In this document: one piece after another, positions 176 to 5,740 of the stretch
How the letters are laid out: the number at the start of each line of letters is the position of its first letter
How positions within the stretch are numbered: the stretch's first letter is position 1
NCBI GenBank assembly: GCA_030637775.1
Contig: DAOWFY010000175.1
Location: forward strand, 1 to 5,740
Reading direction: 5' to 3'
Length of the DNA stretch: 5,740 nt
Source of the DNA: DAOVGU01 sp030637775 [NCBI: bacterium]
GTDB taxonomy: Bacteria > Ratteibacteria > UBA8468
Notes under the pieces: generated by a model
Seen by the model: the letters and a program-made list of their open reading frames with translations, nothing else
Database searches by the model: none
Told to the model about the DNA's origin: nothing
Translations under genes and position numbers: made by a program

Positions 176-583
176 TTAGGTTACGCTGATTATAAAGCTA
201 ACAATCTTCTCTGTTGCTTCAATTGCCTCTTTTGCCTCCTTTTTTGAATATACCTTGGGTTCCCCCAATGGATAACGAGGCTCAATATAATACCCATTTA
301 AGACAATGCATTCTTCTTCAATTGACTTAAAATTTCTATTTAATTTATTACATTCTTTCCATAGTTTGGGTAATTCGTGAATTTGCCACTTTTTTAATTT
401 TCCAATATTTACTCCCTGGCTAACGAGAAAACCTTTTAAATATTTCTCAGCTGCCTGTTGGCAATGGAAGCAGATTATATCCGTCCAACCGCCATGTTCA
501 AATGATAATTTCGCTTCATCAAGATCGTGATTTCCTTTCTCAAACCATTCTTTCGCTAAAATTATCAGATTATTTTGCTTCAT
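176..583 (-). CDS. HEPN domain protein, partner of the MNT nucleotidyltransferase
   Basis: This is a 135-residue, mostly helical protein of the HEPN type (PF05168-like). The family signature is visible: the W33-T-D to Q43-A-A-E-K-Y-L-K helix, an IHELPKLW segment (residues 68-75), and a late ARYP-like motif (P102-R-Y-P). HEPN proteins are commonly encoded next to minimal nucleotidyltransferases. In characterised pairs such as HepT/MntA, the HEPN protein is an RNase toxin that its partner AMPylates. Here the RNase motif R-x4-6-H is not evident, so toxin activity is uncertain. The ATG at 583 is chosen over an upstream TTG at 631 because GAGG lies 6 nt before it and because it overlaps the MNT gene by only 14 nt, which suggests translational coupling. 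No clear terminator hairpin is seen after the stop. The pair looks richer in A+T than the operon that follows, as is common for mobile toxin-antitoxin-like cassettes. Confidence 0.85.
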   Translation of the reverse strand: MKQNNLIILAKEWFEKGNHDLDEAKLSFEHGGWTDIICFHCQQAAEKYLKGFLVSQGVNIGKLKKWQIHELPKLWKECNKLNRNFKSIEEECIVLNGYYIEPRYPLGEPKVYSKKEAKEAIEATEKIVSFIISVT

Positions 584-899
584 ATAATACCTCGCCTTCT
601 TCAAGAATATTCTTGACAAAAAAATCGCCAAGCGCTAGCCGAACCTTAAACTCTTTCGGAGTATAGATAATAAAATCCGCCGGATATTCCCGATCTAAAT
701 CTCGTAATAAATAGAAAATTTCGATCGCTCGGCGATGCCGTGGCAATTTTGTCTGTTTTATGATAAAAAAATCAAGGTCACTTCCCTCTTCAAATTCATC
801 TCTTGCTGCTGAGCCAAACAAAATAATCTTTTCCGGATGATACTTTTTTATAATCCTCTCAGCAATTATCTGGACATCTCTGCTTAATTTTTTAGTCAT
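570..899 (-). CDS. MNT-type minimal nucleotidyltransferase
   Basis: This 109-residue protein has the compact nucleotidyltransferase fold of the MNT/MntA group (pol beta superfamily). The active-site signature is intact: G29-S30, ten residues, then D41-L-D43, with a third acidic residue at D75 in the PADFIIYT strand. In studied HEPN/MNT pairs this enzyme transfers AMP to the HEPN partner and neutralises it. By analogy it would be the antitoxin here, which is inference. It is the first gene of the pair and overlaps the HEPN gene by 14 nt. The start is ambiguous. The ATG at 899 gives the usual family N-terminus, but the AAGG directly before it is too close to act as a normal ribosome site. A TTG at 911, just after an in-frame TAA, would add four residues. 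Translation may be coupled to the 26-codon leader ORF that ends 4 nt upstream of the ATG. Confidence 0.85.
   Translation of the reverse strand: MTKKLSRDVQIIAERIIKKYHPEKIILFGSAARDEFEEGSDLDFFIIKQTKLPRHRRAIEIFYLLRDLDREYPADFIIYTPKEFKVRLALGDFFVKNILEEGEVLYEAK
590..593 (-). promoter_or_regulatory. Ribosome binding site that fixes the HEPN start
   Basis: GAGG on the minus strand, 6 nt before the ATG at 583, lies inside the last codons of the MNT gene. It supports the 583 start over the upstream TTG at 631. Confidence 0.6.
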
Positions 900-903
900 C
901 CTT

Positions 904-984
904 TTAACCAATTACCAAGTCTAAACTGATGACCCGGAAAGGGGTATTTGCATCCTTCCGGTAGATTTTTTCTAAATACCTCAT
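904..984 (-). pseudogene. 26-codon leader ORF, possible PqqD-like N-terminal remnant
   Basis: A minus-strand ATG at 984 opens a 26-codon frame ending in TAA at 904-906, 4 nt before the MNT ATG. The peptide contains LEKIYRKDANTPFRVIS. This resembles the start of PqqD-like proteins as I recall it (roughly 'YxrdpdtPFRvIdgeavIv'), after which the frame ends where about 60-70 more residues would be expected. Two readings fit. It may be a PqqD-like gene cut short, perhaps by arrival of the MNT/HEPN pair, or it may be a genuine short leader peptide coupled to MNT translation. Inside it, CCGGAA (934-939) and TTCCGG (956-961) form a weak 6-bp inverted repeat. The family match is from memory and rests on few residues. 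Confidence 0.3.
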
Positions 985-1111: not shown

Positions 1112-1927
1112 ATGTATGAAGAGTATTGGGGCTTAAAGGAGAAACCCTTCGAGAATACCCCTGACCCGAAGTTTCTCTATCTCTCCAAGCAACATGAAGA
1201 GGGTTTATCCCGATTGCTCTATGTGGTCAAGGAGAGAAAGGGTGCGGGAATCTTAACCGGAGTATTTGGTTGCGGGAAGACGGTTTTGGCCCAGGCTCTT
1301 CTTAAGGAATTAAGTGAAAATATCTACAGGATAGCTCTGATCAATAATCCTCACCTCAAGGCAATTGAGCTTCTCCGCGCCATTGGCCGGCAATTAGGCG
1401 CCGAGGACTTACCGCAGAGAATAACCGAGATGTCGGCCGACTTCTTCCTCGAGTTAATCGAGGGGATCCTCTTAAATAATACCAAGGATGGAAAGGAAAC
1501 TCTCCTCATCATTGATGAGGCCCACATCATCAAAGATGAGGAGGTCCTGGAGGAATTAAGGTTGCTTTTGAACTTCCAGTCAGAGAAAAGGTTCCTCTTA
1601 ACCCTTTTGTTGTTGGGACAACCGGAGTTAAGCAAGAGAATCCAGAAGAATAAGCAGTTGGTCCAGAGAATTGCGATGGGCTTTCACCTTACCCCATTGA
1701 ATAAGAAGGAAACAAAAAACTACATCATTCATCGATTAAATGTGGCTCAAAGACCGAAGCCAGTTTTCTCTGAAGATGGTCTCAATTCAATCTATGAGAA
1801 TTCTGGAGGTATTCCCAGAAGAATAAACCAGATCTGCGATATAGGTCTCCTTACCGGCTTTAGTAAAAAGGTGGAAAGGATAGATAAAAAGATTATTCAG
1901 GAATCCGTAGACAGTTTAGGAATCTAA
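1112..1927 (+). CDS. ExeA/GspA-like AAA+ ATPase
   Basis: This 271-residue cytoplasmic P-loop ATPase is of the ExeA (GspA) type. The N-terminus MYEEYWGLKEKPFENTPDP is typical of the family, which fixes the start. Walker A is G50-VFGCG-K56-T57 and Walker B is LLIID135-E136-AH. A sensor-1-like segment, LLLLGQPEL (165-173), and a sensor-2-like GGIPRRINQ (232-240) follow. There is no C-terminal peptidoglycan-binding domain or membrane helix, so this is the short form. ExeA itself helps assemble the type II secretin through the cell wall, and related ATPases appear in many export and transposition settings. No secretion gene is visible here, so the client is unknown. It heads an operon with a histidine kinase starting 5 nt after its stop and two receivers. 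The only SD-like sequence, AAGG, sits 2 nt from the ATG, too close to work normally, which agrees with a leaderless message. Confidence 0.88.
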   Translation: MYEEYWGLKEKPFENTPDPKFLYLSKQHEEGLSRLLYVVKERKGAGILTGVFGCGKTVLAQALLKELSENIYRIALINNPHLKAIELLRAIGRQLGAEDLPQRITEMSADFFLELIEGILLNNTKDGKETLLIIDEAHIIKDEEVLEELRLLLNFQSEKRFLLTLLLLGQPELSKRIQKNKQLVQRIAMGFHLTPLNKKETKNYIIHRLNVAQRPKPVFSEDGLNSIYENSGGIPRRINQICDIGLLTGFSKKVERIDKKIIQESVDSLGI

Positions 1928-1932
1928 ATGTA

Positions 1933-3111
1933 ATGGAGAAAAAAAGAGCATCTCTTTCCTTAAAGAATCAAGGCATTAAGAAAAAGGCGGTGATCCTCTA
2001 TATCCTTGGTTCCCTCATTCCTTTATTGTTCTCCGGGTATCTCATTGCCAGATACATTCTCCCCTCCATCTCTCCGGCCGAAAATCTGCCAATCATAATT
2101 TTACTGATTCTTTTTCTTTCCTTTTTAGGGATTTTACCGCTCTCAAGGATGATGAGTACCATCTCCCGGATAGTAAAAGGGTCCGAGAAGGTAGCGCAAG
2201 GGGAAAAATTAAAGCCTCTGGAGATTGAGGAGGATGAGCTCGGAAGGCTTGCCACATCTCTAAATCTCACTGCGGAAAGGATCCAGAAGGATGCCCGAGA
2301 GTTACAGAGTAATACGCAAGCCCTCCAGGAGGCGCGTTATCAGTTAAATAAAAGCAATCAGGATCTAAAAAGAGTAAACCAAGAATTGGAAAGATTAAGC
2401 AAGGCAAAGACTTTATTCATCTCCAAGGCCTCTCACGAATTACGCAATCCTCTGAGCGTAATTAAGGAGTCCATTTCCCAGATTTTAGAAGGGGTGAAGG
2501 GAAAGGTTAATAAGGAGCAAGAGGAATTCTTAGGTATGGCTTACAGGAATACGAATAGGCTTACATTGTTGATTAACAATTTATTGGACCTTTCTCAAAT
2601 AGAGGCCGGAAGAATTGAGTATCGAAGAACTCTTGTAGATATTTCTGAGGTGGTTAAGGAAGTGCTGGATGCTACCCGGATGCAGGCCGATAAAAAGAGG
2701 ATTAAAATCATTAATAATCTTCCGGCAAACCTTCCTTCCTTATGGCTTGATAAGAGCAGAATAACCCAGGTCTGTACCAATCTCCTTGATAATGCCATTA
2801 AGTTCAGTAAAGAGGGGGGAAGAGTGATCGTGGAGGCCCGGGAAGAAGAAAAGGATGTTGAGATTAGTATCCGCGATTTCGGAGCCGGCATCAAACCACA
2901 AAATATTGACCTGATTTTTGATCGCTTCCGTCGTATTGATTCCGGGTACTTACCTACCCAGGGGCTTGGTCTGGGACTGCCAATCTGCAAAGAGATTGTT
3001 GAGAACCATCAGGGAAGGATCGGGGTAGAAAGCAAATTGGGAGAGGGAAGTAAGTTTATCTTTACCTTACCCAAAGAAAAAAATGAGCAAGAGAATTCTG
3101 GTGGTGGATGA
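1933..3111 (+). CDS. Membrane sensor histidine kinase (HAMP-HisKA-HATPase)
   Basis: This is a 392-residue kinase. Two membrane helices lie at about 19-42 and 52-71, with only about ten residues between them, so there is almost no periplasmic sensor. A HAMP-like linker (about 71-125) and a coiled coil (about 120-158) follow. The HisKA H-box is S-H168-ELRNPL. The ATPase domain shows the N box (NLLDN287AIKFS), G1 box (D315-FGAGI), F box (IFDRFRR, 329-335) and G2 box (GLGLGLPI, 344-351), so all catalytic motifs are present. It should autophosphorylate H168 and pass phosphate to a receiver, most likely the one encoded next. The input signal is unknown; it could be sensed within the membrane or supplied by the upstream ATPase (inference). 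The gene starts 5 nt after the ATPase stop, with a poorly spaced AGGA about 12 nt upstream. Its last 29 nt overlap the next gene and encode an unstructured-looking tail ending SGGG. Confidence 0.92.
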   Translation: MEKKRASLSLKNQGIKKKAVILYILGSLIPLLFSGYLIARYILPSISPAENLPIIILLILFLSFLGILPLSRMMSTISRIVKGSEKVAQGEKLKPLEIEEDELGRLATSLNLTAERIQKDARELQSNTQALQEARYQLNKSNQDLKRVNQELERLSKAKTLFISKASHELRNPLSVIKESISQILEGVKGKVNKEQEEFLGMAYRNTNRLTLLINNLLDLSQIEAGRIEYRRTLVDISEVVKEVLDATRMQADKKRIKIINNLPANLPSLWLDKSRITQVCTNLLDNAIKFSKEGGRVIVEAREEEKDVEISIRDFGAGIKPQNIDLIFDRFRRIDSGYLPTQGLGLGLPICKEIVENHQGRIGVESKLGEGSKFIFTLPKEKNEQENSGGG

Positions 3112-3484
3112 CGAGCCGGATGTGGTGAAGGCGATTGTCTCAAGACTGAAGGGAGAAGGTTATGAGGTAATTACTGCCTCTGGAGGTAAAGAGGCATTGG
3201 ATAAAGTCCGCAGTCAAAGACCTGACTTGATGCTTTTAGATATTATTATGCCGGGGATGGATGGAATAGAGGTTCTCCAGCAACTGAAGGAGATAGATCC
3301 TGATCTTCCGGTAGTTATCATCACCGCCCATCCTTCTCTGGAACCTAAGGATATTTTAAAATATGGAGCCTCCGGTTATATAAAAAAGCCATTTGAGTCC
3401 GAGGAATTGAAAGGGGCCATTAAGGAAGGGCTCGAGGAAAAAAAGGAGACAAAAGATGTCCAAAAAAATTTTAGTCATCGATGA
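3083..3484 (+). CDS. Single-domain response regulator (receiver)
   Basis: This 133-residue receiver protein has a complete active site: acidic pair D9-D10, phosphoacceptor D53 in LMLLDIIMPGMDG, T81 and K102 in IKKPF. No DNA-binding or enzymatic output domain follows. The last residues (about 119-133) are a charged tail partly encoded by the overlap with the next gene. By count, the segment between T81 and G95 is one residue shorter than in classical receivers. It is the probable phosphate acceptor from the preceding kinase and likely acts by binding another protein. The ATG is well supported by the family start (SKRILVVDDEPDV) but has no Shine-Dalgarno sequence, only an A-rich run. It lies 29 nt inside the kinase gene, so translation probably depends on ribosomes reading the kinase. 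Confidence 0.9.
   Translation: MSKRILVVDDEPDVVKAIVSRLKGEGYEVITASGGKEALDKVRSQRPDLMLLDIIMPGMDGIEVLQQLKEIDPDLPVVIITAHPSLEPKDILKYGASGYIKKPFESEELKGAIKEGLEEKKETKDVQKNFSHR
3443..3448 (+). promoter_or_regulatory. Strong ribosome binding site of the second receiver gene
   Basis: AAGGAG lies 7 nt before the ATG at 3456 and inside the coding end of the first receiver. It contrasts with the first receiver, which has no such site, and suggests that the second receiver is initiated independently, perhaps at a higher rate. Confidence 0.65.
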
Positions 3485-3827
3485 TGACCCTGATATCAGG
3501 GAAATGATAAAAAGCAGGTTAAAGGCAAACGGTTATACGGTTATTGTAGCTTCTGATGGATCGGAAGGGTTGGAGATGGCAAAGAGGGAACATCCTGATT
3601 TGATCCTTCTTAATGTCATGATGCCAAAATTAAGCGGGGTAACAGCCGCGATTAGACTGAAGGAGACCAAGGAGACAGAATCCATACCCATTATCTTAAT
3701 TACCGGGATTAGTGAGAGTGAGGCGCGCGCCCTCGCTCTCCGCTTTGGGGCAGAGAATTATATTATAAAACCTTTTGAAGGATCAGAATTGGTTAATAAG
3801 ATTGAAAAGGTACTAAAGGGTTTCTGA
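3456..3827 (+). CDS. Receiver-like protein with Asp-to-Asn phosphoacceptor
   Basis: This 123-residue protein is a single receiver domain. The acidic pair D9-D10, T83 and K105 (IIKPF) are in place, but the phosphoacceptor position reads LILLN53VMMPKLSG, with asparagine (codon AAT) in place of aspartate. It therefore should not be phosphorylated in the usual way. Asp-to-Asn in receivers generally mimics the unphosphorylated state, so it may be a constitutive partner, a decoy or a competitor of the first receiver (inference). The usual Asp after the Pro turn is also changed (KLSG versus GMDG in the neighbour). The fold is otherwise well kept, so this is not an obviously decaying gene. It starts 29 nt inside the previous receiver gene behind a strong AAGGAG site, and its 3' end overlaps the convergent HD-GYP gene by 15 bp. 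Confidence 0.9.
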   Translation: MSKKILVIDDDPDIREMIKSRLKANGYTVIVASDGSEGLEMAKREHPDLILLNVMMPKLSGVTAAIRLKETKETESIPIILITGISESEARALALRFGAENYIIKPFEGSELVNKIEKVLKGF

Positions 3828-4862
3828 TTTTTCGTAGATTCTACCTATCTCCTTATCCGTCAATGTCCTCCTGATGGAATAGAGGGAGTCCTGACAAAGA
3901 TTGATTCTTTTTGGAGTTTCCAACTTCCGGCCCTGGGAATCAAAGTAAATCTCCACCTCCGGTTTAAGAGGAGAATCGGGAATGGTTCTGCACACCCTCC
4001 CTATCTCACCGGTACTCAATCTTAGCCAGGTATCCATGGGGTAAAAGGTAATCTGGCGCAGAAGCACCTTCAGGATAGACCTAGCAAACTGCCTTTCACT
4101 ACCGGTCTCAATAATCCTTAAGATTGCCTCCTCGGGAGGCACTCTTCTTCGGAAAGCTCGGGAATGGGTCAGAGCCTCAAAGGTATCGGCCAATCCAATG
4201 ATCTTTGCCCACTCATGGATTTGCTCATCCTTATACCCACCGGGATAACCTCTCCCATCTCCCCTTTCATGCTCCTGATGAACCGCCAATAGAATATCCT
4301 TGTTTATTCCCTCAATTTCCTTTAATCTGTCGCGTCCATGGAGGGGATGTAGATTGATGTGTGTCCTCTCGCCGGGAGTAAGTTTCCCATTTTTGAAGAG
4401 AATCTTTTCGGGAAGGGCACTCATTCCCGCCTCGTGAAGAAGGGAGGCAATTCCCAAATCTACGAGCTGGGCTGTGGGGTATTTAAGTTCCATCCCCATC
4501 GCCAGGGAAAGAAGGCAGACATTCAGTGAATGATTAGGGAAATATGCTCTCGCGACAGGATAGTCCTTGATGATATTTTCCCAGTATTCTGAGAGAAGGT
4601 TTGAAGAGGAGAAAGAATCGACAATCTTTGCTGTTCTATCCTCTAAATCTTCAAGATTGATCTTCTCTTTCTTTTCGATCTTACTCCAGATTCTCCGGGA
4701 AAAATTAAGAAGTTCCGGGTAAGATTCCCTCTCCTTTGTCAATGAAGGAAGTTTCTTCTCTCTTATAGGTATTGTGAATTTCTCTTCCTTTTTTAACTTT
4801 TCCGGAGAAGGTTCTCTCCTTAAGGCTCTTTCTTTCTTAATAATCTTTGAGAACTTAATCAT
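3813..4862 (-). CDS. HD-GYP domain protein with divergent metal-site residues
   Basis: This 349-residue protein has no visible signal peptide or membrane helix. A lysine/glutamate-rich N-terminus (about 1-60) and a helical region precede an HD-GYP domain (about 105-260). A strand-rich C-terminal module (YPMDTWLRLSTGEIGRV, 274-290, to the end) often follows HD-GYP domains. The family hydrolyses cyclic di-GMP. The signature is recognisable: H111, then LLH143-E144-AGM where LLHDIGK is usual, H172-PLHG, EH198-ERGDG-RGYP where HHERxDGxGYP is usual, and D226 in LADTFEA. Two probable metal ligands thus become glutamate, so activity may be altered but need not be lost. The ATG at 4862 is preferred to a GTG at 4913 because the extra 17 residues would come from a palindromic repeat. 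A TATAAA lies 7 nt upstream of the ATG. The gene converges on the two-component operon and overlaps its last gene by 15 bp. Confidence 0.88.
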   Translation of the reverse strand: MIKFSKIIKKERALRREPSPEKLKKEEKFTIPIREKKLPSLTKERESYPELLNFSRRIWSKIEKKEKINLEDLEDRTAKIVDSFSSSNLLSEYWENIIKDYPVARAYFPNHSLNVCLLSLAMGMELKYPTAQLVDLGIASLLHEAGMSALPEKILFKNGKLTPGERTHINLHPLHGRDRLKEIEGINKDILLAVHQEHERGDGRGYPGGYKDEQIHEWAKIIGLADTFEALTHSRAFRRRVPPEEAILRIIETGSERQFARSILKVLLRQITFYPMDTWLRLSTGEIGRVCRTIPDSPLKPEVEIYFDSQGRKLETPKRINLCQDSLYSIRRTLTDKEIGRIYEKSETL

Positions 4863-4869
4863 AATAATC

Positions 4870-4875
4870 TTTATA
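4870..4875 (-). promoter_or_regulatory. Possible -10 element of the HD-GYP gene
   Basis: TATAAA on the minus strand ends 7 nt before the ATG at 4862, so transcription from it would give a leaderless or nearly leaderless message. No good -35 is found; the expected position falls inside the palindromic element. The gene could instead be read through from the small membrane protein promoter upstream. Confidence 0.35.
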
Positions 4876-4879
4876 CAGG

Positions 4880-4954
4880 TGTAGTGGCCGAGTTTACTCG
4901 GCTGGAGTAGCACTGCTTGCAGTGCGAGACAAGTCTCGCTACTCCGCCACTACA
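4880..4954. repeat. 75-nt nested palindromic (cloverleaf-like) element
   Basis: Almost every base can pair. An outer 9-bp stem TGTAGTGGC/GCCACTACA (4880-4888 with 4946-4954) encloses one hairpin and an inner 7-bp stem GGAGTAG/CTACTCC (4904-4910 with 4939-4945), which encloses two more hairpins. The three hairpins are perfect 7-2-7 palindromes of the same design: GCCGAGTTTACTCGGC (4887-4902), GCACTGCTTGCAGTGC (4910-4925) and GCGAGACAAGTCTCGC (4924-4939). It lies directly against the TAA of the small membrane protein gene and 17 bp before the HD-GYP start. There is no T tract on either side, so it is not a standard intrinsic terminator, and I see no clear target-site duplication. It resembles REP/BIME or MITE-like intergenic repeats. 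There is no second copy in this window. Confidence 0.8.
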
Positions 4955-5131
4955 TTACTTCTTTGCCAATAACATCAGGGCAATGGCAAAGAACAAACAG
5001 GTGTTGGTGAACTGGGCGAAGGACCTTGCTACCAGACCCCGAGGAAATGGTACAAGAGTAACCCGGGAGACAAGACCTAAAAGGAAACTTATCGCCGCCA
5101 CAATAATCAGAGCATTAACCAATTTCTTCAT
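4955..5131 (-). CDS. Small two-helix membrane protein, unknown function
   Basis: This 58-residue minus-strand ORF runs from the ATG at 5131 to the TAA at 4955-4957. Two hydrophobic segments (about residues 4-21, LVNALIIVAAISFLLGLV, and 43-56, NTCLFFAIALMLLA) flank a loop containing PFPRGLVARSFAQF. Lysines at both ends (MKK and AKK) suggest that both termini face the cytoplasm. Support that it is real: GGAG 5 nt before the ATG (5140-5137), a good promoter upstream, and a sensible hairpin-type topology. I do not recognise a named family. It is transcribed in the same direction as the transferase gene upstream and the HD-GYP gene downstream. Its stop codon abuts the palindromic element, which could protect the 3' end of its message. 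Confidence 0.75.
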   Translation of the reverse strand: MKKLVNALIIVAAISFLLGLVSRVTLVPFPRGLVARSFAQFTNTCLFFAIALMLLAKK

Positions 5132-5160
5132 TTTTTCTCCATCACCCCCATAATTTTTAA

Positions 5161-5189
5161 ATTGTACTACCCTTTAAGAAAAAAATCAA
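5161..5189 (-). promoter_or_regulatory. Sigma-70-type promoter of the small membrane protein gene
   Basis: On the minus strand, TTGATT (5189-5184), a 17-nt spacer, then TACAAT (5166-5161). The expected start near 5154 leaves a leader of about 22 nt carrying the GGAG site. The same -35 sequence and spacing occur in the MNT/HEPN promoter. Confidence 0.6.
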
Positions 5190-5195
5190 ACTTGT

Positions 5196-5740
5196 TTATT
5201 CTTTCCCTCTTTTAGCGACATTCATCAGAACAACAATCACCAGGAGAATAAAAGCGACCTGAACTAAGATTAAGAAGATTTCCCCGCGATTGATGCTCCG
5301 AAGGATCAGAGAGCCGATGCTCAAGGTAAAGGCTAAAAGATAGAGAAAGAATACTGCCTCCTTTTGACTAAAGCCTAAGTTCAAAAGCCGGTGGTGAAGA
5401 TGGTCTTTTCCCACATATTTAATCCATTCCAAAAAGTTGGTGGTCTCTTTCCTTCTAATCCGGGAAATTGTAATATAAATCATGTCAAAGATAGGAATAC
5501 TTAAGATAAGGATTGGGGTGCCCAATGCTATAACCGGATTATTCTCTGCCCATCCACCCATCACCGCTAAACTGGCTAAAGAAAAACCGATGAATGTGCT
5601 GCCACTATCACCTAAAAATATTTTTGCCGGATGAAAGTTATACCATAAAAATCCTAAAAGGGCACCCGCAAGCACAATTGATAGATAAGCAAGATAGGTC
5701 TGCCCGGTCTCTAAGGCGATTATCAAGAAGAATAAGGAGC
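5196..5740 (-). CDS. Polyprenyl-phosphate sugar-1-phosphate transferase (WecA/MraY family), 3' part
   Basis: This is the C-terminal part of an integral membrane glycosyltransferase-4 family enzyme that moves a sugar-1-phosphate from a UDP-sugar to undecaprenyl phosphate, the first step of cell-surface polysaccharide assembly. Counting from the first complete codon (5738), the motifs are [12 protein letters not shown]44SGS, the family's cytoplasmic catalytic segment; PIFD85M, the second conserved Asp; and D112-HLHHRL, the histidine loop typical of WecA/TagO/WbpL-type members rather than MraY. About five membrane helices are visible (roughly 15-31, 46-64, 70-88, 127-146 and 152-174). The frame stays open to the window edge and the residues there match mid-protein sequence, so the TTG at 5726 is not the start. 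The N-terminal part lies outside. No clear terminator follows the stop. The sugar specificity cannot be read from this part. Confidence 0.88.

What the first reader, a model, noticed from the sequence alone, without database searches (positions are those of the whole stretch)
4880..4954. Nested palindromic element built from three identical-design 7-2-7 palindromes
Three perfect 16-bp palindromes, each starting and ending in GC with a TT or AA centre, are held in two further stems so that nearly all of 75 nt can pair as a cloverleaf. It abuts a stop codon and lies just upstream of the HD-GYP start. This is more ordered than a usual REP and has no U tract. It could be a non-autonomous mobile repeat, for example moved by a REP-associated Y1 transposase, an RNA processing or stability element, or a protein-binding DNA cruciform. 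All functions are inference.
Basis: partly seen in the sequence, partly recalled or inferred. Interest (0 to 1): 0.65.

Follow-up and report, generated by a model that had tools for sequence, protein, structure and literature searches.

The report
GTAG-tagged repeat cluster (REP element)
The palindrome cluster is one copy of a family of short, probably mobile DNA repeats (GTAG-tagged REP elements) scattered between genes of an uncultured bacterium and apparently spread by a known kind of single-strand transposase, so it is a new member of a known class rather than a new system.

Summary
In detail: 4881-4953 holds three perfect 7-2-7 palindromes inside two further stems, in a 92-nt gap between two minus-strand genes. 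Palindromes 2 and 3 share two bases, and the cloverleaf is a near-optimal fold, not the optimum. Each palindrome has a 5' GTAG or GGAG foot and a TT loop: the element is a GTAG-type REP cluster, a GGAG inverted dimer nested in a GTAG dimer. The window's genome, a family-level relative of a Ca. Ratteibacteria MAG, holds at least 45 perfect units of this design, mostly in inverted pairs, with strong stem covariation. Dimers sit inside another repeat whose empty form exists in the same genome; 10 of 11 orthologous-site comparisons in relatives lack any unit. RAYT transposases occur in the genome and relatives; in one relative a RAYT gene carries two in-frame units of this type and one just downstream. 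In-frame REP units in RAYT genes are already published for subclass 2.4 (PMC6006769). No RAYT linked to the window's unit type was found in its own incomplete assembly, and movement is inferred. New member of a known kind.

The parts
4881..4953 (.). whole REP cluster (GGAG inverted dimer nested in a GTAG inverted dimer)
4881..4902 (+). unit 1: foot GTAG, TG, hairpin GCCGAGT-TT-ACTCGGC
   Evidence: the same 22-mer occurs 4 times in the genome
4904..4925 (+). unit 2: foot GGAG, TA, hairpin GCACTGC-TT-GCAGTGC
   Evidence: 2 copies in the genome
4924..4945 (-). unit 3: foot GGAG, TA, hairpin GCGAGAC-TT-GTCTCGC; shares 4924-4925 with unit 2
   Evidence: 3 copies in the genome
4946..4953 (-). bare foot GTAGTGGC, taken as the remnant of a fourth, outer unit; pairs with 4881-4888
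   Evidence: sequence; 'remnant' is inference
4955..5131 (-). 58-aa ORF (MKKLVNALII...), upstream neighbour in the direction of transcription; stop codon 1 nt from the cluster
   Evidence: no NCBIfam match
3813..4862 (-). HD-GYP-type gene (HD_5), downstream neighbour; start chosen at ATG 4862-4860

Best explanation
The feature is a cluster of GTAG-type REP units (REP/BIME), a non-autonomous repeat family. Each unit is a four-base foot (GTAG, or the variant GGAG), two bases, and a perfect 7-bp hairpin with a TT loop. By analogy with characterised TnpA-REP/REP pairs, a RAYT recognises the folded single strand by its foot and loop, cuts and joins it, and units move or are copied, mostly as inverted pairs, into intergenic sites. 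In the window a GGAG inverted dimer lies inside a GTAG inverted dimer whose second unit is reduced to its foot. Shown here: multicopy family, covariation, variable presence between relatives, RAYT genes in the genome and relatives. Inferred: the cutting and joining steps, that the relative's RAYT type is the mobiliser, and the order of the nested events.
For: 45 of 55 pattern hits in the genome are perfect 7-2-7 palindromes, all with TT loops. Stem covariation on 27 distinct units: 96.8% of cells paired, score 0.826 vs 0.271 shuffled and at most 0.170 slid, 61 doubly changed cells vs 19 shuffled, 0 of 500 shuffles as high. 19 of 25 close neighbour pairs are inverted (12 HH, 7 TT, 6 HT). GTAG units start directly after GATACAAT (GATTCAAT once) in three copies of another repeat that exists empty at C157. 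10 of 11 orthologous-site comparisons lack any unit. RAYT genes: G003 gene with two in-frame units and one just downstream; both in-frame 22-mers also occur in the window's genome, 1 and 6 times. Relatives of that RAYT in 6 of 8 genomes searched; NCBIfam REP_Tyr_transpos passed by L110 (86.1 vs 80); best PDB match 4er8, TnpA-REP; published GTAG-reading residues W, Q, E, H, R invariant at the same spacing in 9 of 9 proteins aligned.
Against: The only RAYT of this type found in the window's assembly (L113) is flanked by GTAGGGG-type units, not the window's type, and scores below the NCBIfam cut-off (64.9 vs 80). G002 has an excess of pattern hits (38 vs 13 control, texts not listed) but no such RAYT at E <= 0.01, so co-occurrence is imperfect. 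The three filled copies of the other repeat could descend from one insertion. At several orthologous sites the intergenic DNA does not align or holds other repeats, so absence there does not fix a junction. The window's own site could not be tested. One measure (number of pairs with a change on both sides, 6) is no better than shuffles (130 of 500). No cleavage or transposition was observed.
Confidence: 0.85

Rival explanations
1. The cluster acts mainly as RNA: in a transcript running from the 58-aa ORF into the HD-GYP gene (minus strand) it folds into a stable multi-hairpin that protects the upstream message or tunes the downstream gene.
For: Both neighbours are on the minus strand and the cluster lies 1 nt after a stop codon; the fold is strong. 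REPs are known to be transcribed and proposed to stabilise mRNA (PMC3733652, abstract).
Against: Most of 11 orthologous-site comparisons lack units (10 of 11), so no conserved role at a site is seen; the repeats are dispersed next to unrelated genes; no Rfam match; no terminator-like site.
Confidence: 0.1
2. The units are binding sites for a host DNA-binding protein, as double-stranded palindromes or cruciforms.
For: Perfect palindromes; REPs and BIMEs are reported as binding sites of several host proteins (PMC2817692, start of abstract in the listing).
Against: Stem sequence varies while pairing is kept and only foot, loop and the base pair are constant, which fits recognition of a folded strand better than a fixed duplex site.
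Confidence: 0.04
3. Chance or local inverted repeats with no family.
For: None beyond the fact that single 7-2-7 palindromes occur by chance (0.54 per window).
Against: Three in 60 nt never seen in 500 null windows; multicopy and covarying family.
Confidence: 0.01

Closest known systems
GTAG-tagged REP superfamily (Di Nocera 2013, PMC3733652; abstract, sections 5, 7, 16 and passages seen)
   Same: GTAG foot, short stem of 5-13 bp, short loop (many fit TY), HH/TT dimers and clusters, mainly intergenic, sometimes inserted in other palindromes, RAYTs in the same genomes
   Different: I could not match it to one of the 24 listed families (the figure is not held); GGAG feet occur here; dimer nested within dimer; Elusimicrobia not named in that paper (0 occurrences)
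Perfect-palindrome REPs of group 3 TnpA-REP, e.g. Stenotrophomonas maltophilia REPtron Sm and Marinomonas Mb (PMC8266576; abstract, sections 10, 17, 29 seen)
   Same: perfect palindrome next to GTAG; Mb also has 2 bases between foot and stem
   Different: stem 7 bp and loop TT here; the RAYTs here carry E and H at the guide positions and the WQ / YIxNNP motifs listed for subclass 2.4 rather than 2.5
TnpA-REP subclass 2.4 / RAYT group 4 (Quentin 2018, PMC6006769; section 12 and passages seen)
   Same: WQ and YIxNNP motifs, in-frame REP units inside the transposase gene, double-foot (GTAG...CTAC) arrangements, scattered across phyla
   Different: the paper puts insertions generally between HuH and Y; here 11 of 22 genes have a sense unit before and an antisense unit after the HUH codons; several proteins have TH or EH in place of NH in the HUH motif
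REPINs (Bertels and Rainey 2011, PMC3116915; seen only in search listings)
   Same: inverted REP pairs as the apparent unit of spread
   Different: population dynamics not tested here

Membership tests
GTAG REP superfamily | GTAG-type tetranucleotide at the 5' foot of a short hairpin | tested here: met
   unit 1 and the outer remnant have GTAG; units 2 and 3 have GGAG, a variant not in the GYAG/GYRG/GTRG/GTMG list of PMC3733652 section 5
GTAG REP superfamily | stem 5-13 bp, loop 2-20 nt | tested here: met
   7 bp and 2 nt, 45 of 55 hits perfect
GTAG REP superfamily | many copies, mainly outside genes, often as dimers | tested here: met
   32 of 38 units in 19 held loci lie outside ORFs of 100 aa or more, the other 6 within 50 nt of an ORF end
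GTAG REP superfamily | RAYT in the same genome | tested here: met
   L113 in G000; scores under the NCBIfam cut-off
GTAG REP superfamily | that RAYT is flanked by units of the same type (REPtron) | tested here: inconclusive
   in G003 a RAYT has units of this type inside and downstream; in the window's own genome the RAYT has GTAGGGG-type flanks and the assembly is 83.5% complete
GTAG REP superfamily | processing of the single-stranded unit by the RAYT | not testable with these tools
   needs biochemistry
TnpA-REP subclass 2.4 (for the RAYTs) | motifs NH[IFV]H, WQ, YIxNNP | tested here: inconclusive
   L110, L111, L125, L126 have NH[IV]H; L112, L113, L127 have TH, L114 EH, L116 and L133 NHLH; WQ is invariant in A2; no placement on the published tree was made
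TnpA-REP subclass 2.4 (for the RAYTs) | REP units inserted in frame in the transposase gene | tested here: met
   17 of 22 genes, leaving out L112 and L113 whose unit precedes the likely start; not met by L113, the RAYT of the window's own genome
Intrinsic terminator | hairpin followed by a T run | tested here: not met
   0 found in 4700-5200
Structured RNA of Rfam 15 | match at gathering score | tested here: not met
   0 matches in the window
TIR-associated Y1 element (TIRtron) | unit next to a Y1 protein with DnaA-like C-terminus | tested here: not met
   L015 and L016 have that C-terminus but no unit of the family in their 3330-nt loci

The most novel reading that the evidence does not exclude
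In this RAYT group the transposase gene itself carries, in frame, an inverted pair of its own clade's REP units, often one on each side of the codons for the HUH motif, and the unit type follows the RAYT clade even where one genome holds several clades. The in-gene pair would then be a working part of the system (cis target, self-regulation through the folded gene strand or message, or the source from which dispersed units are copied) rather than accidental insertions tolerated in loops.
Probability: 0.2. Interest if true: 0.55.

Novelty: new member of a known kind. Interest (0 to 1): 0.3.

Why it matters
It carries the RAYT/REP system into Ratteibacteria-family genomes and some Elusimicrobia, with a same-genome empty site that places the insertion point at the GTAG foot. 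The side results (unit type following RAYT clade, inverted in-gene pairs around HUH) offer natural matched RAYT/REP pairs for the open question of how REPs spread.

Tried and rejected
Set aside: a known structured RNA (no Rfam match in the window); an intrinsic terminator; the two long Y1 proteins of G000 as mobilisers. The latter (L015 and L016, 312 and 314 aa) have a DnaA-like C-terminus, GGGGTCAG-like sequence beside them (by eye) and no unit of the family in their loci, which fits the TIR-associated group of PMC3733652 and PMC6006769. The Pfam Y1 search did not list the RAYT later found in G000.

An orthologous empty site for the window copy was sought and not found: the best HD-GYP match outside the genome is 35% identical, and the G003 contig with the neighbouring glycosyltransferase ends shortly after that gene, with no counterpart of the 58-aa ORF in the stretch read.

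I first took the in-gene REP units of RAYT genes for unreported; PMC6006769 section 12 reports them for subclass 2.4, so the claim was cut back. phmmer of one long Y1 protein against PDB sequences gave nothing; the profile of the RAYT type gave 4er8. The cloverleaf with 2-nt loops has no defined RNA energy and was recomputed with 4-nt loops.

Full report
What is there. The window is contig C11 of a 1.40-Mb assembly, 83.5% complete. Bases 4881-4953 contain three perfect 7-2-7 palindromes (4887, 4910, 4924); the only other one in the window is at 601. A Markov-1 null gives 0.54 per window and no case of three within 60 nt in 500 trials. The region folds far better than shuffles (z -4.3). The cloverleaf is a close second to the best fold on either strand (-33.3 against -34.6 and -35.4 kcal/mol), and palindromes 2 and 3 share two bases. 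The cluster lies in a 92-nt gap between a 58-aa ORF (4955-5131, minus) and an HD-GYP-type gene (ATG 4862-4860, minus), with no terminator-like site.

What it is made of. Read on the proper strand, each palindrome follows a four-base foot and two bases (GTAG-TG, GGAG-TA and, on the minus strand, GGAG-TA) and has a TT loop. The right end is a bare foot, GTAGTGGC on the minus strand. So the cluster is a GGAG inverted dimer inside a GTAG inverted dimer whose second unit lacks its hairpin; the order of events is inference.

The family in the genome. BLAST with the 79-mer finds 14 places at E <= 1: one full, one 92% identical over 66 nt, the rest shorter parts. The pattern GKAGTNGYNNNNNWWNNNNNRC finds 55 places against 38 for its reversed control, a weak excess as a bare count; but 45 of the 55 are perfect 7-2-7 palindromes, all with TT loops. 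The control hits were not listed, so their palindromes were not counted. Hits against control are 186 vs 41 in G001, 94 vs 24 in G003 and 38 vs 13 in G002; only part of the G001 matches and none of G002 or G003 were printed. On 27 distinct units, 21 perfect and 6 with mismatches, 96.8% of cells pair, the covariation score is 0.826 against 0.271 shuffled and at most 0.170 slid, and 61 cells change on both sides against 19 shuffled (0 of 500 as high for these three); the bare number of pairs with a double change (6 of 7) is not above shuffles (130 of 500). Among 50 units, close neighbours form 12 HH, 7 TT and 6 HT pairs and 5 are isolated. Of 38 units in 19 held loci, 32 lie outside ORFs of 100 aa or more and 6 within 50 nt of an ORF end.

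Distribution. In 61 genomes including its own, the 79-mer matches at E <= 0.001 in 3, all in the window's family of 4 genomes. An exact scan of genome contigs for GTAGTNGCCGAGTNNACTCGGC gives 24 stretches: 4 in Candidatus Ratteibacteria CG_4_9_14_3_um_filter_41_21, 9 in MAG CSMAG_1143, 8 in Elusimicrobia UBA9627, and one each in Elusimicrobia RIFOXYD2_FULL_34_15, Elusimicrobia UBA5214 and an Omnitrophota MAG. Equal contig lengths and positions identify the first two with G003 and G001.

Evidence for insertion. A second repeat family of the genome (GTGGGAAA feet) serves as a target. At C157 it reads GATACAAT|ATCAAGG; at C131, C30 and C115 GTAG units start directly after the same bases (GATTCAAT in C115, where a single unit with one stem mismatch is present). 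These could descend from one insertion followed by spread of the composite. For 14 loci I sought the flanking genes in G001-G003 and compared 8 sites (L002, L004, L010, L011, L012, L013, L018, L023) in 11 site-by-genome comparisons. 10 show no unit (GTAG or GGAG foot, at most one stem mismatch); one, the L004 site in G003, shares the same dimer at the same place. Clean gaps are seen at the L013 site (G003), the L012 and L011 sites (G002) and, by eye, the L010 site (G003). At the others the intergenic DNA does not align well or holds other repeats, so they show absence, not a precise junction. The window site could not be tested.

The transposase. Y1 genes occur in 4 of 4 family genomes. A 156-aa RAYT of G003 has two units of the window's type inside the gene, in frame, and one 25 nt after its last codon; the in-gene 22-mers also occur in the window's genome, once and six times. 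Relatives of this protein occur at E <= 0.01 in 6 of 8 genomes searched (G000, G001, G003 and three Elusimicrobia), not in G002 or the Omnitrophota MAG. NCBIfam REP_Tyr_transpos (cut-off 80) is passed by L110 (86.1) and L126 (94.8) and missed by L113 of G000 (64.9), L133 (70.9), L015 (68) and L016 (75.2). The best PDB match of the profile is 4er8, TnpA-REP. Residues W, Q, E, H, R at the published spacing for GTAG reading are invariant in 9 of 9 aligned proteins. Against the simple story, the only RAYT of this type in the window's assembly is flanked by GTAGGGG-type units, so the enzyme for the window's unit type in this organism is lost, unassembled or a different one.

In-gene units. From (11 of 198 genomes drawn from the phylum of G064 had a match at E <= 1e-15) I took 24 RAYT loci, leaving out weaker or partial hits, and dropped two with frames under 120 aa (L128, L135). 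The 22 other stop-to-stop frames hold 39 GTAG hairpin units against 1.24 expected from synonymous shuffles (maximum 4 of 300). Three (L117, L127, L132) have none; in L112 and L113 the unit precedes the likely start; that leaves 17 of 22. In 11 of 22 a sense unit lies before and an antisense unit after the HUH codons. Density is 3.74 per kb in RAYT frames (41 in 10,953 nt, edge-crossing units counted), 0.21 in other ORFs of the same loci (11 in 52,110) and 2.29 between genes (23 in 10,063). In the tree, four genes from G063, G075 and G169 with 3-4 nt loops form one clade (99/100), although G075 and G169 also hold genes of other types; but L110 and L111 do not join the other TT-loop genes with support, and L117 and L132 are long branches. 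Units of one clade at one position may be inherited from one insertion. A pattern for that clade's unit occurs 67, 22, 21, 16 and 13 times in G075, G061, G169, G063 and G080, and 0-1 times in the other 17 of 22 genomes, control 0; in G080 no RAYT of that clade was found at the threshold, which is against a strict match.

Comparison with what is known. GTAG REPs, HH/TT dimers, clusters, insertion inside other palindromes, in-gene REPs and RAYT association are published (PMC3733652: abstract, sections 5, 7, 16 and passages), as are perfect-palindrome REPs cut by their TnpA-REP (PMC8266576: abstract, sections 10, 17, 29). In-frame REP insertions in tnpA-REP genes and double-foot REPs are published for subclass 2.4 with motifs NH[IFV]H / WQ / YIxNNP (PMC6006769: section 12 and passages). 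Term searches inside single papers found no 'elusimicrob' in PMC3733652 and PMC12306157 and no 'omnitroph' in PMC6006769. Literature searches were made, open-licence papers only, so a report elsewhere may exist. The element is a new member of a known kind; GGAG feet, the dimer-in-dimer nesting and in-gene units before HUH are variations.

Verdict. Interest is moderate to low.

Noticed in passing
L110, L111, L114, L115, L116, L125, L126, L129-L131, L133, L134, L136-L140 (RAYT genes): RAYT genes with in-frame GTAG hairpin units, in 11 of 22 genes as an inverted pair around the HUH codons; unit type tends to follow RAYT clade. In-frame units as such are published for subclass 2.4.
   Followed up: partly
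G000 contigs, e.g. L005 1470-1590, L061, L067, L076: A second repeat family with GTGGGAAA feet and short palindromes, in inverted pairs, which serves as a landing site for the GTAG units.
   Followed up: partly
L113 1434-1489 and 1935-1995; L112: GTAGGGG-type REP units with 9-bp stems on both sides of the RAYT genes of G000 and G001.
   Followed up: no
L010 about 1500-1560 with riboswitch at 1682-1910 (-); L183 448-691: In G000 a REP pair lies between a cobalamin riboswitch region (RF00174, 72.4 bits) and the next start codon; G003 has the riboswitch (49 bits) and no units.
   Followed up: partly
L015 925-1863 (-), L016 1468-2412 (+): Two long Y1 proteins with DnaA-like C-terminus in G000, of the TIR-associated kind.
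   Followed up: partly
window 176-911 (-): Overlapping HEPN-domain and nucleotidyltransferase ORFs (PF05168; PF18765/PF01909), the layout of a HEPN/MNT toxin-antitoxin pair (the pairing is recalled knowledge).
   Followed up: no
window 1112-3827 (+): AAA ATPase, histidine kinase and two response-regulator ORFs in a row.
   Followed up: no
L018 site, G001 stretch L172: The same intergenic site holds GTAG units in G000 and a different GTCATTGCGAGCG-type repeat in G001.
   Followed up: no
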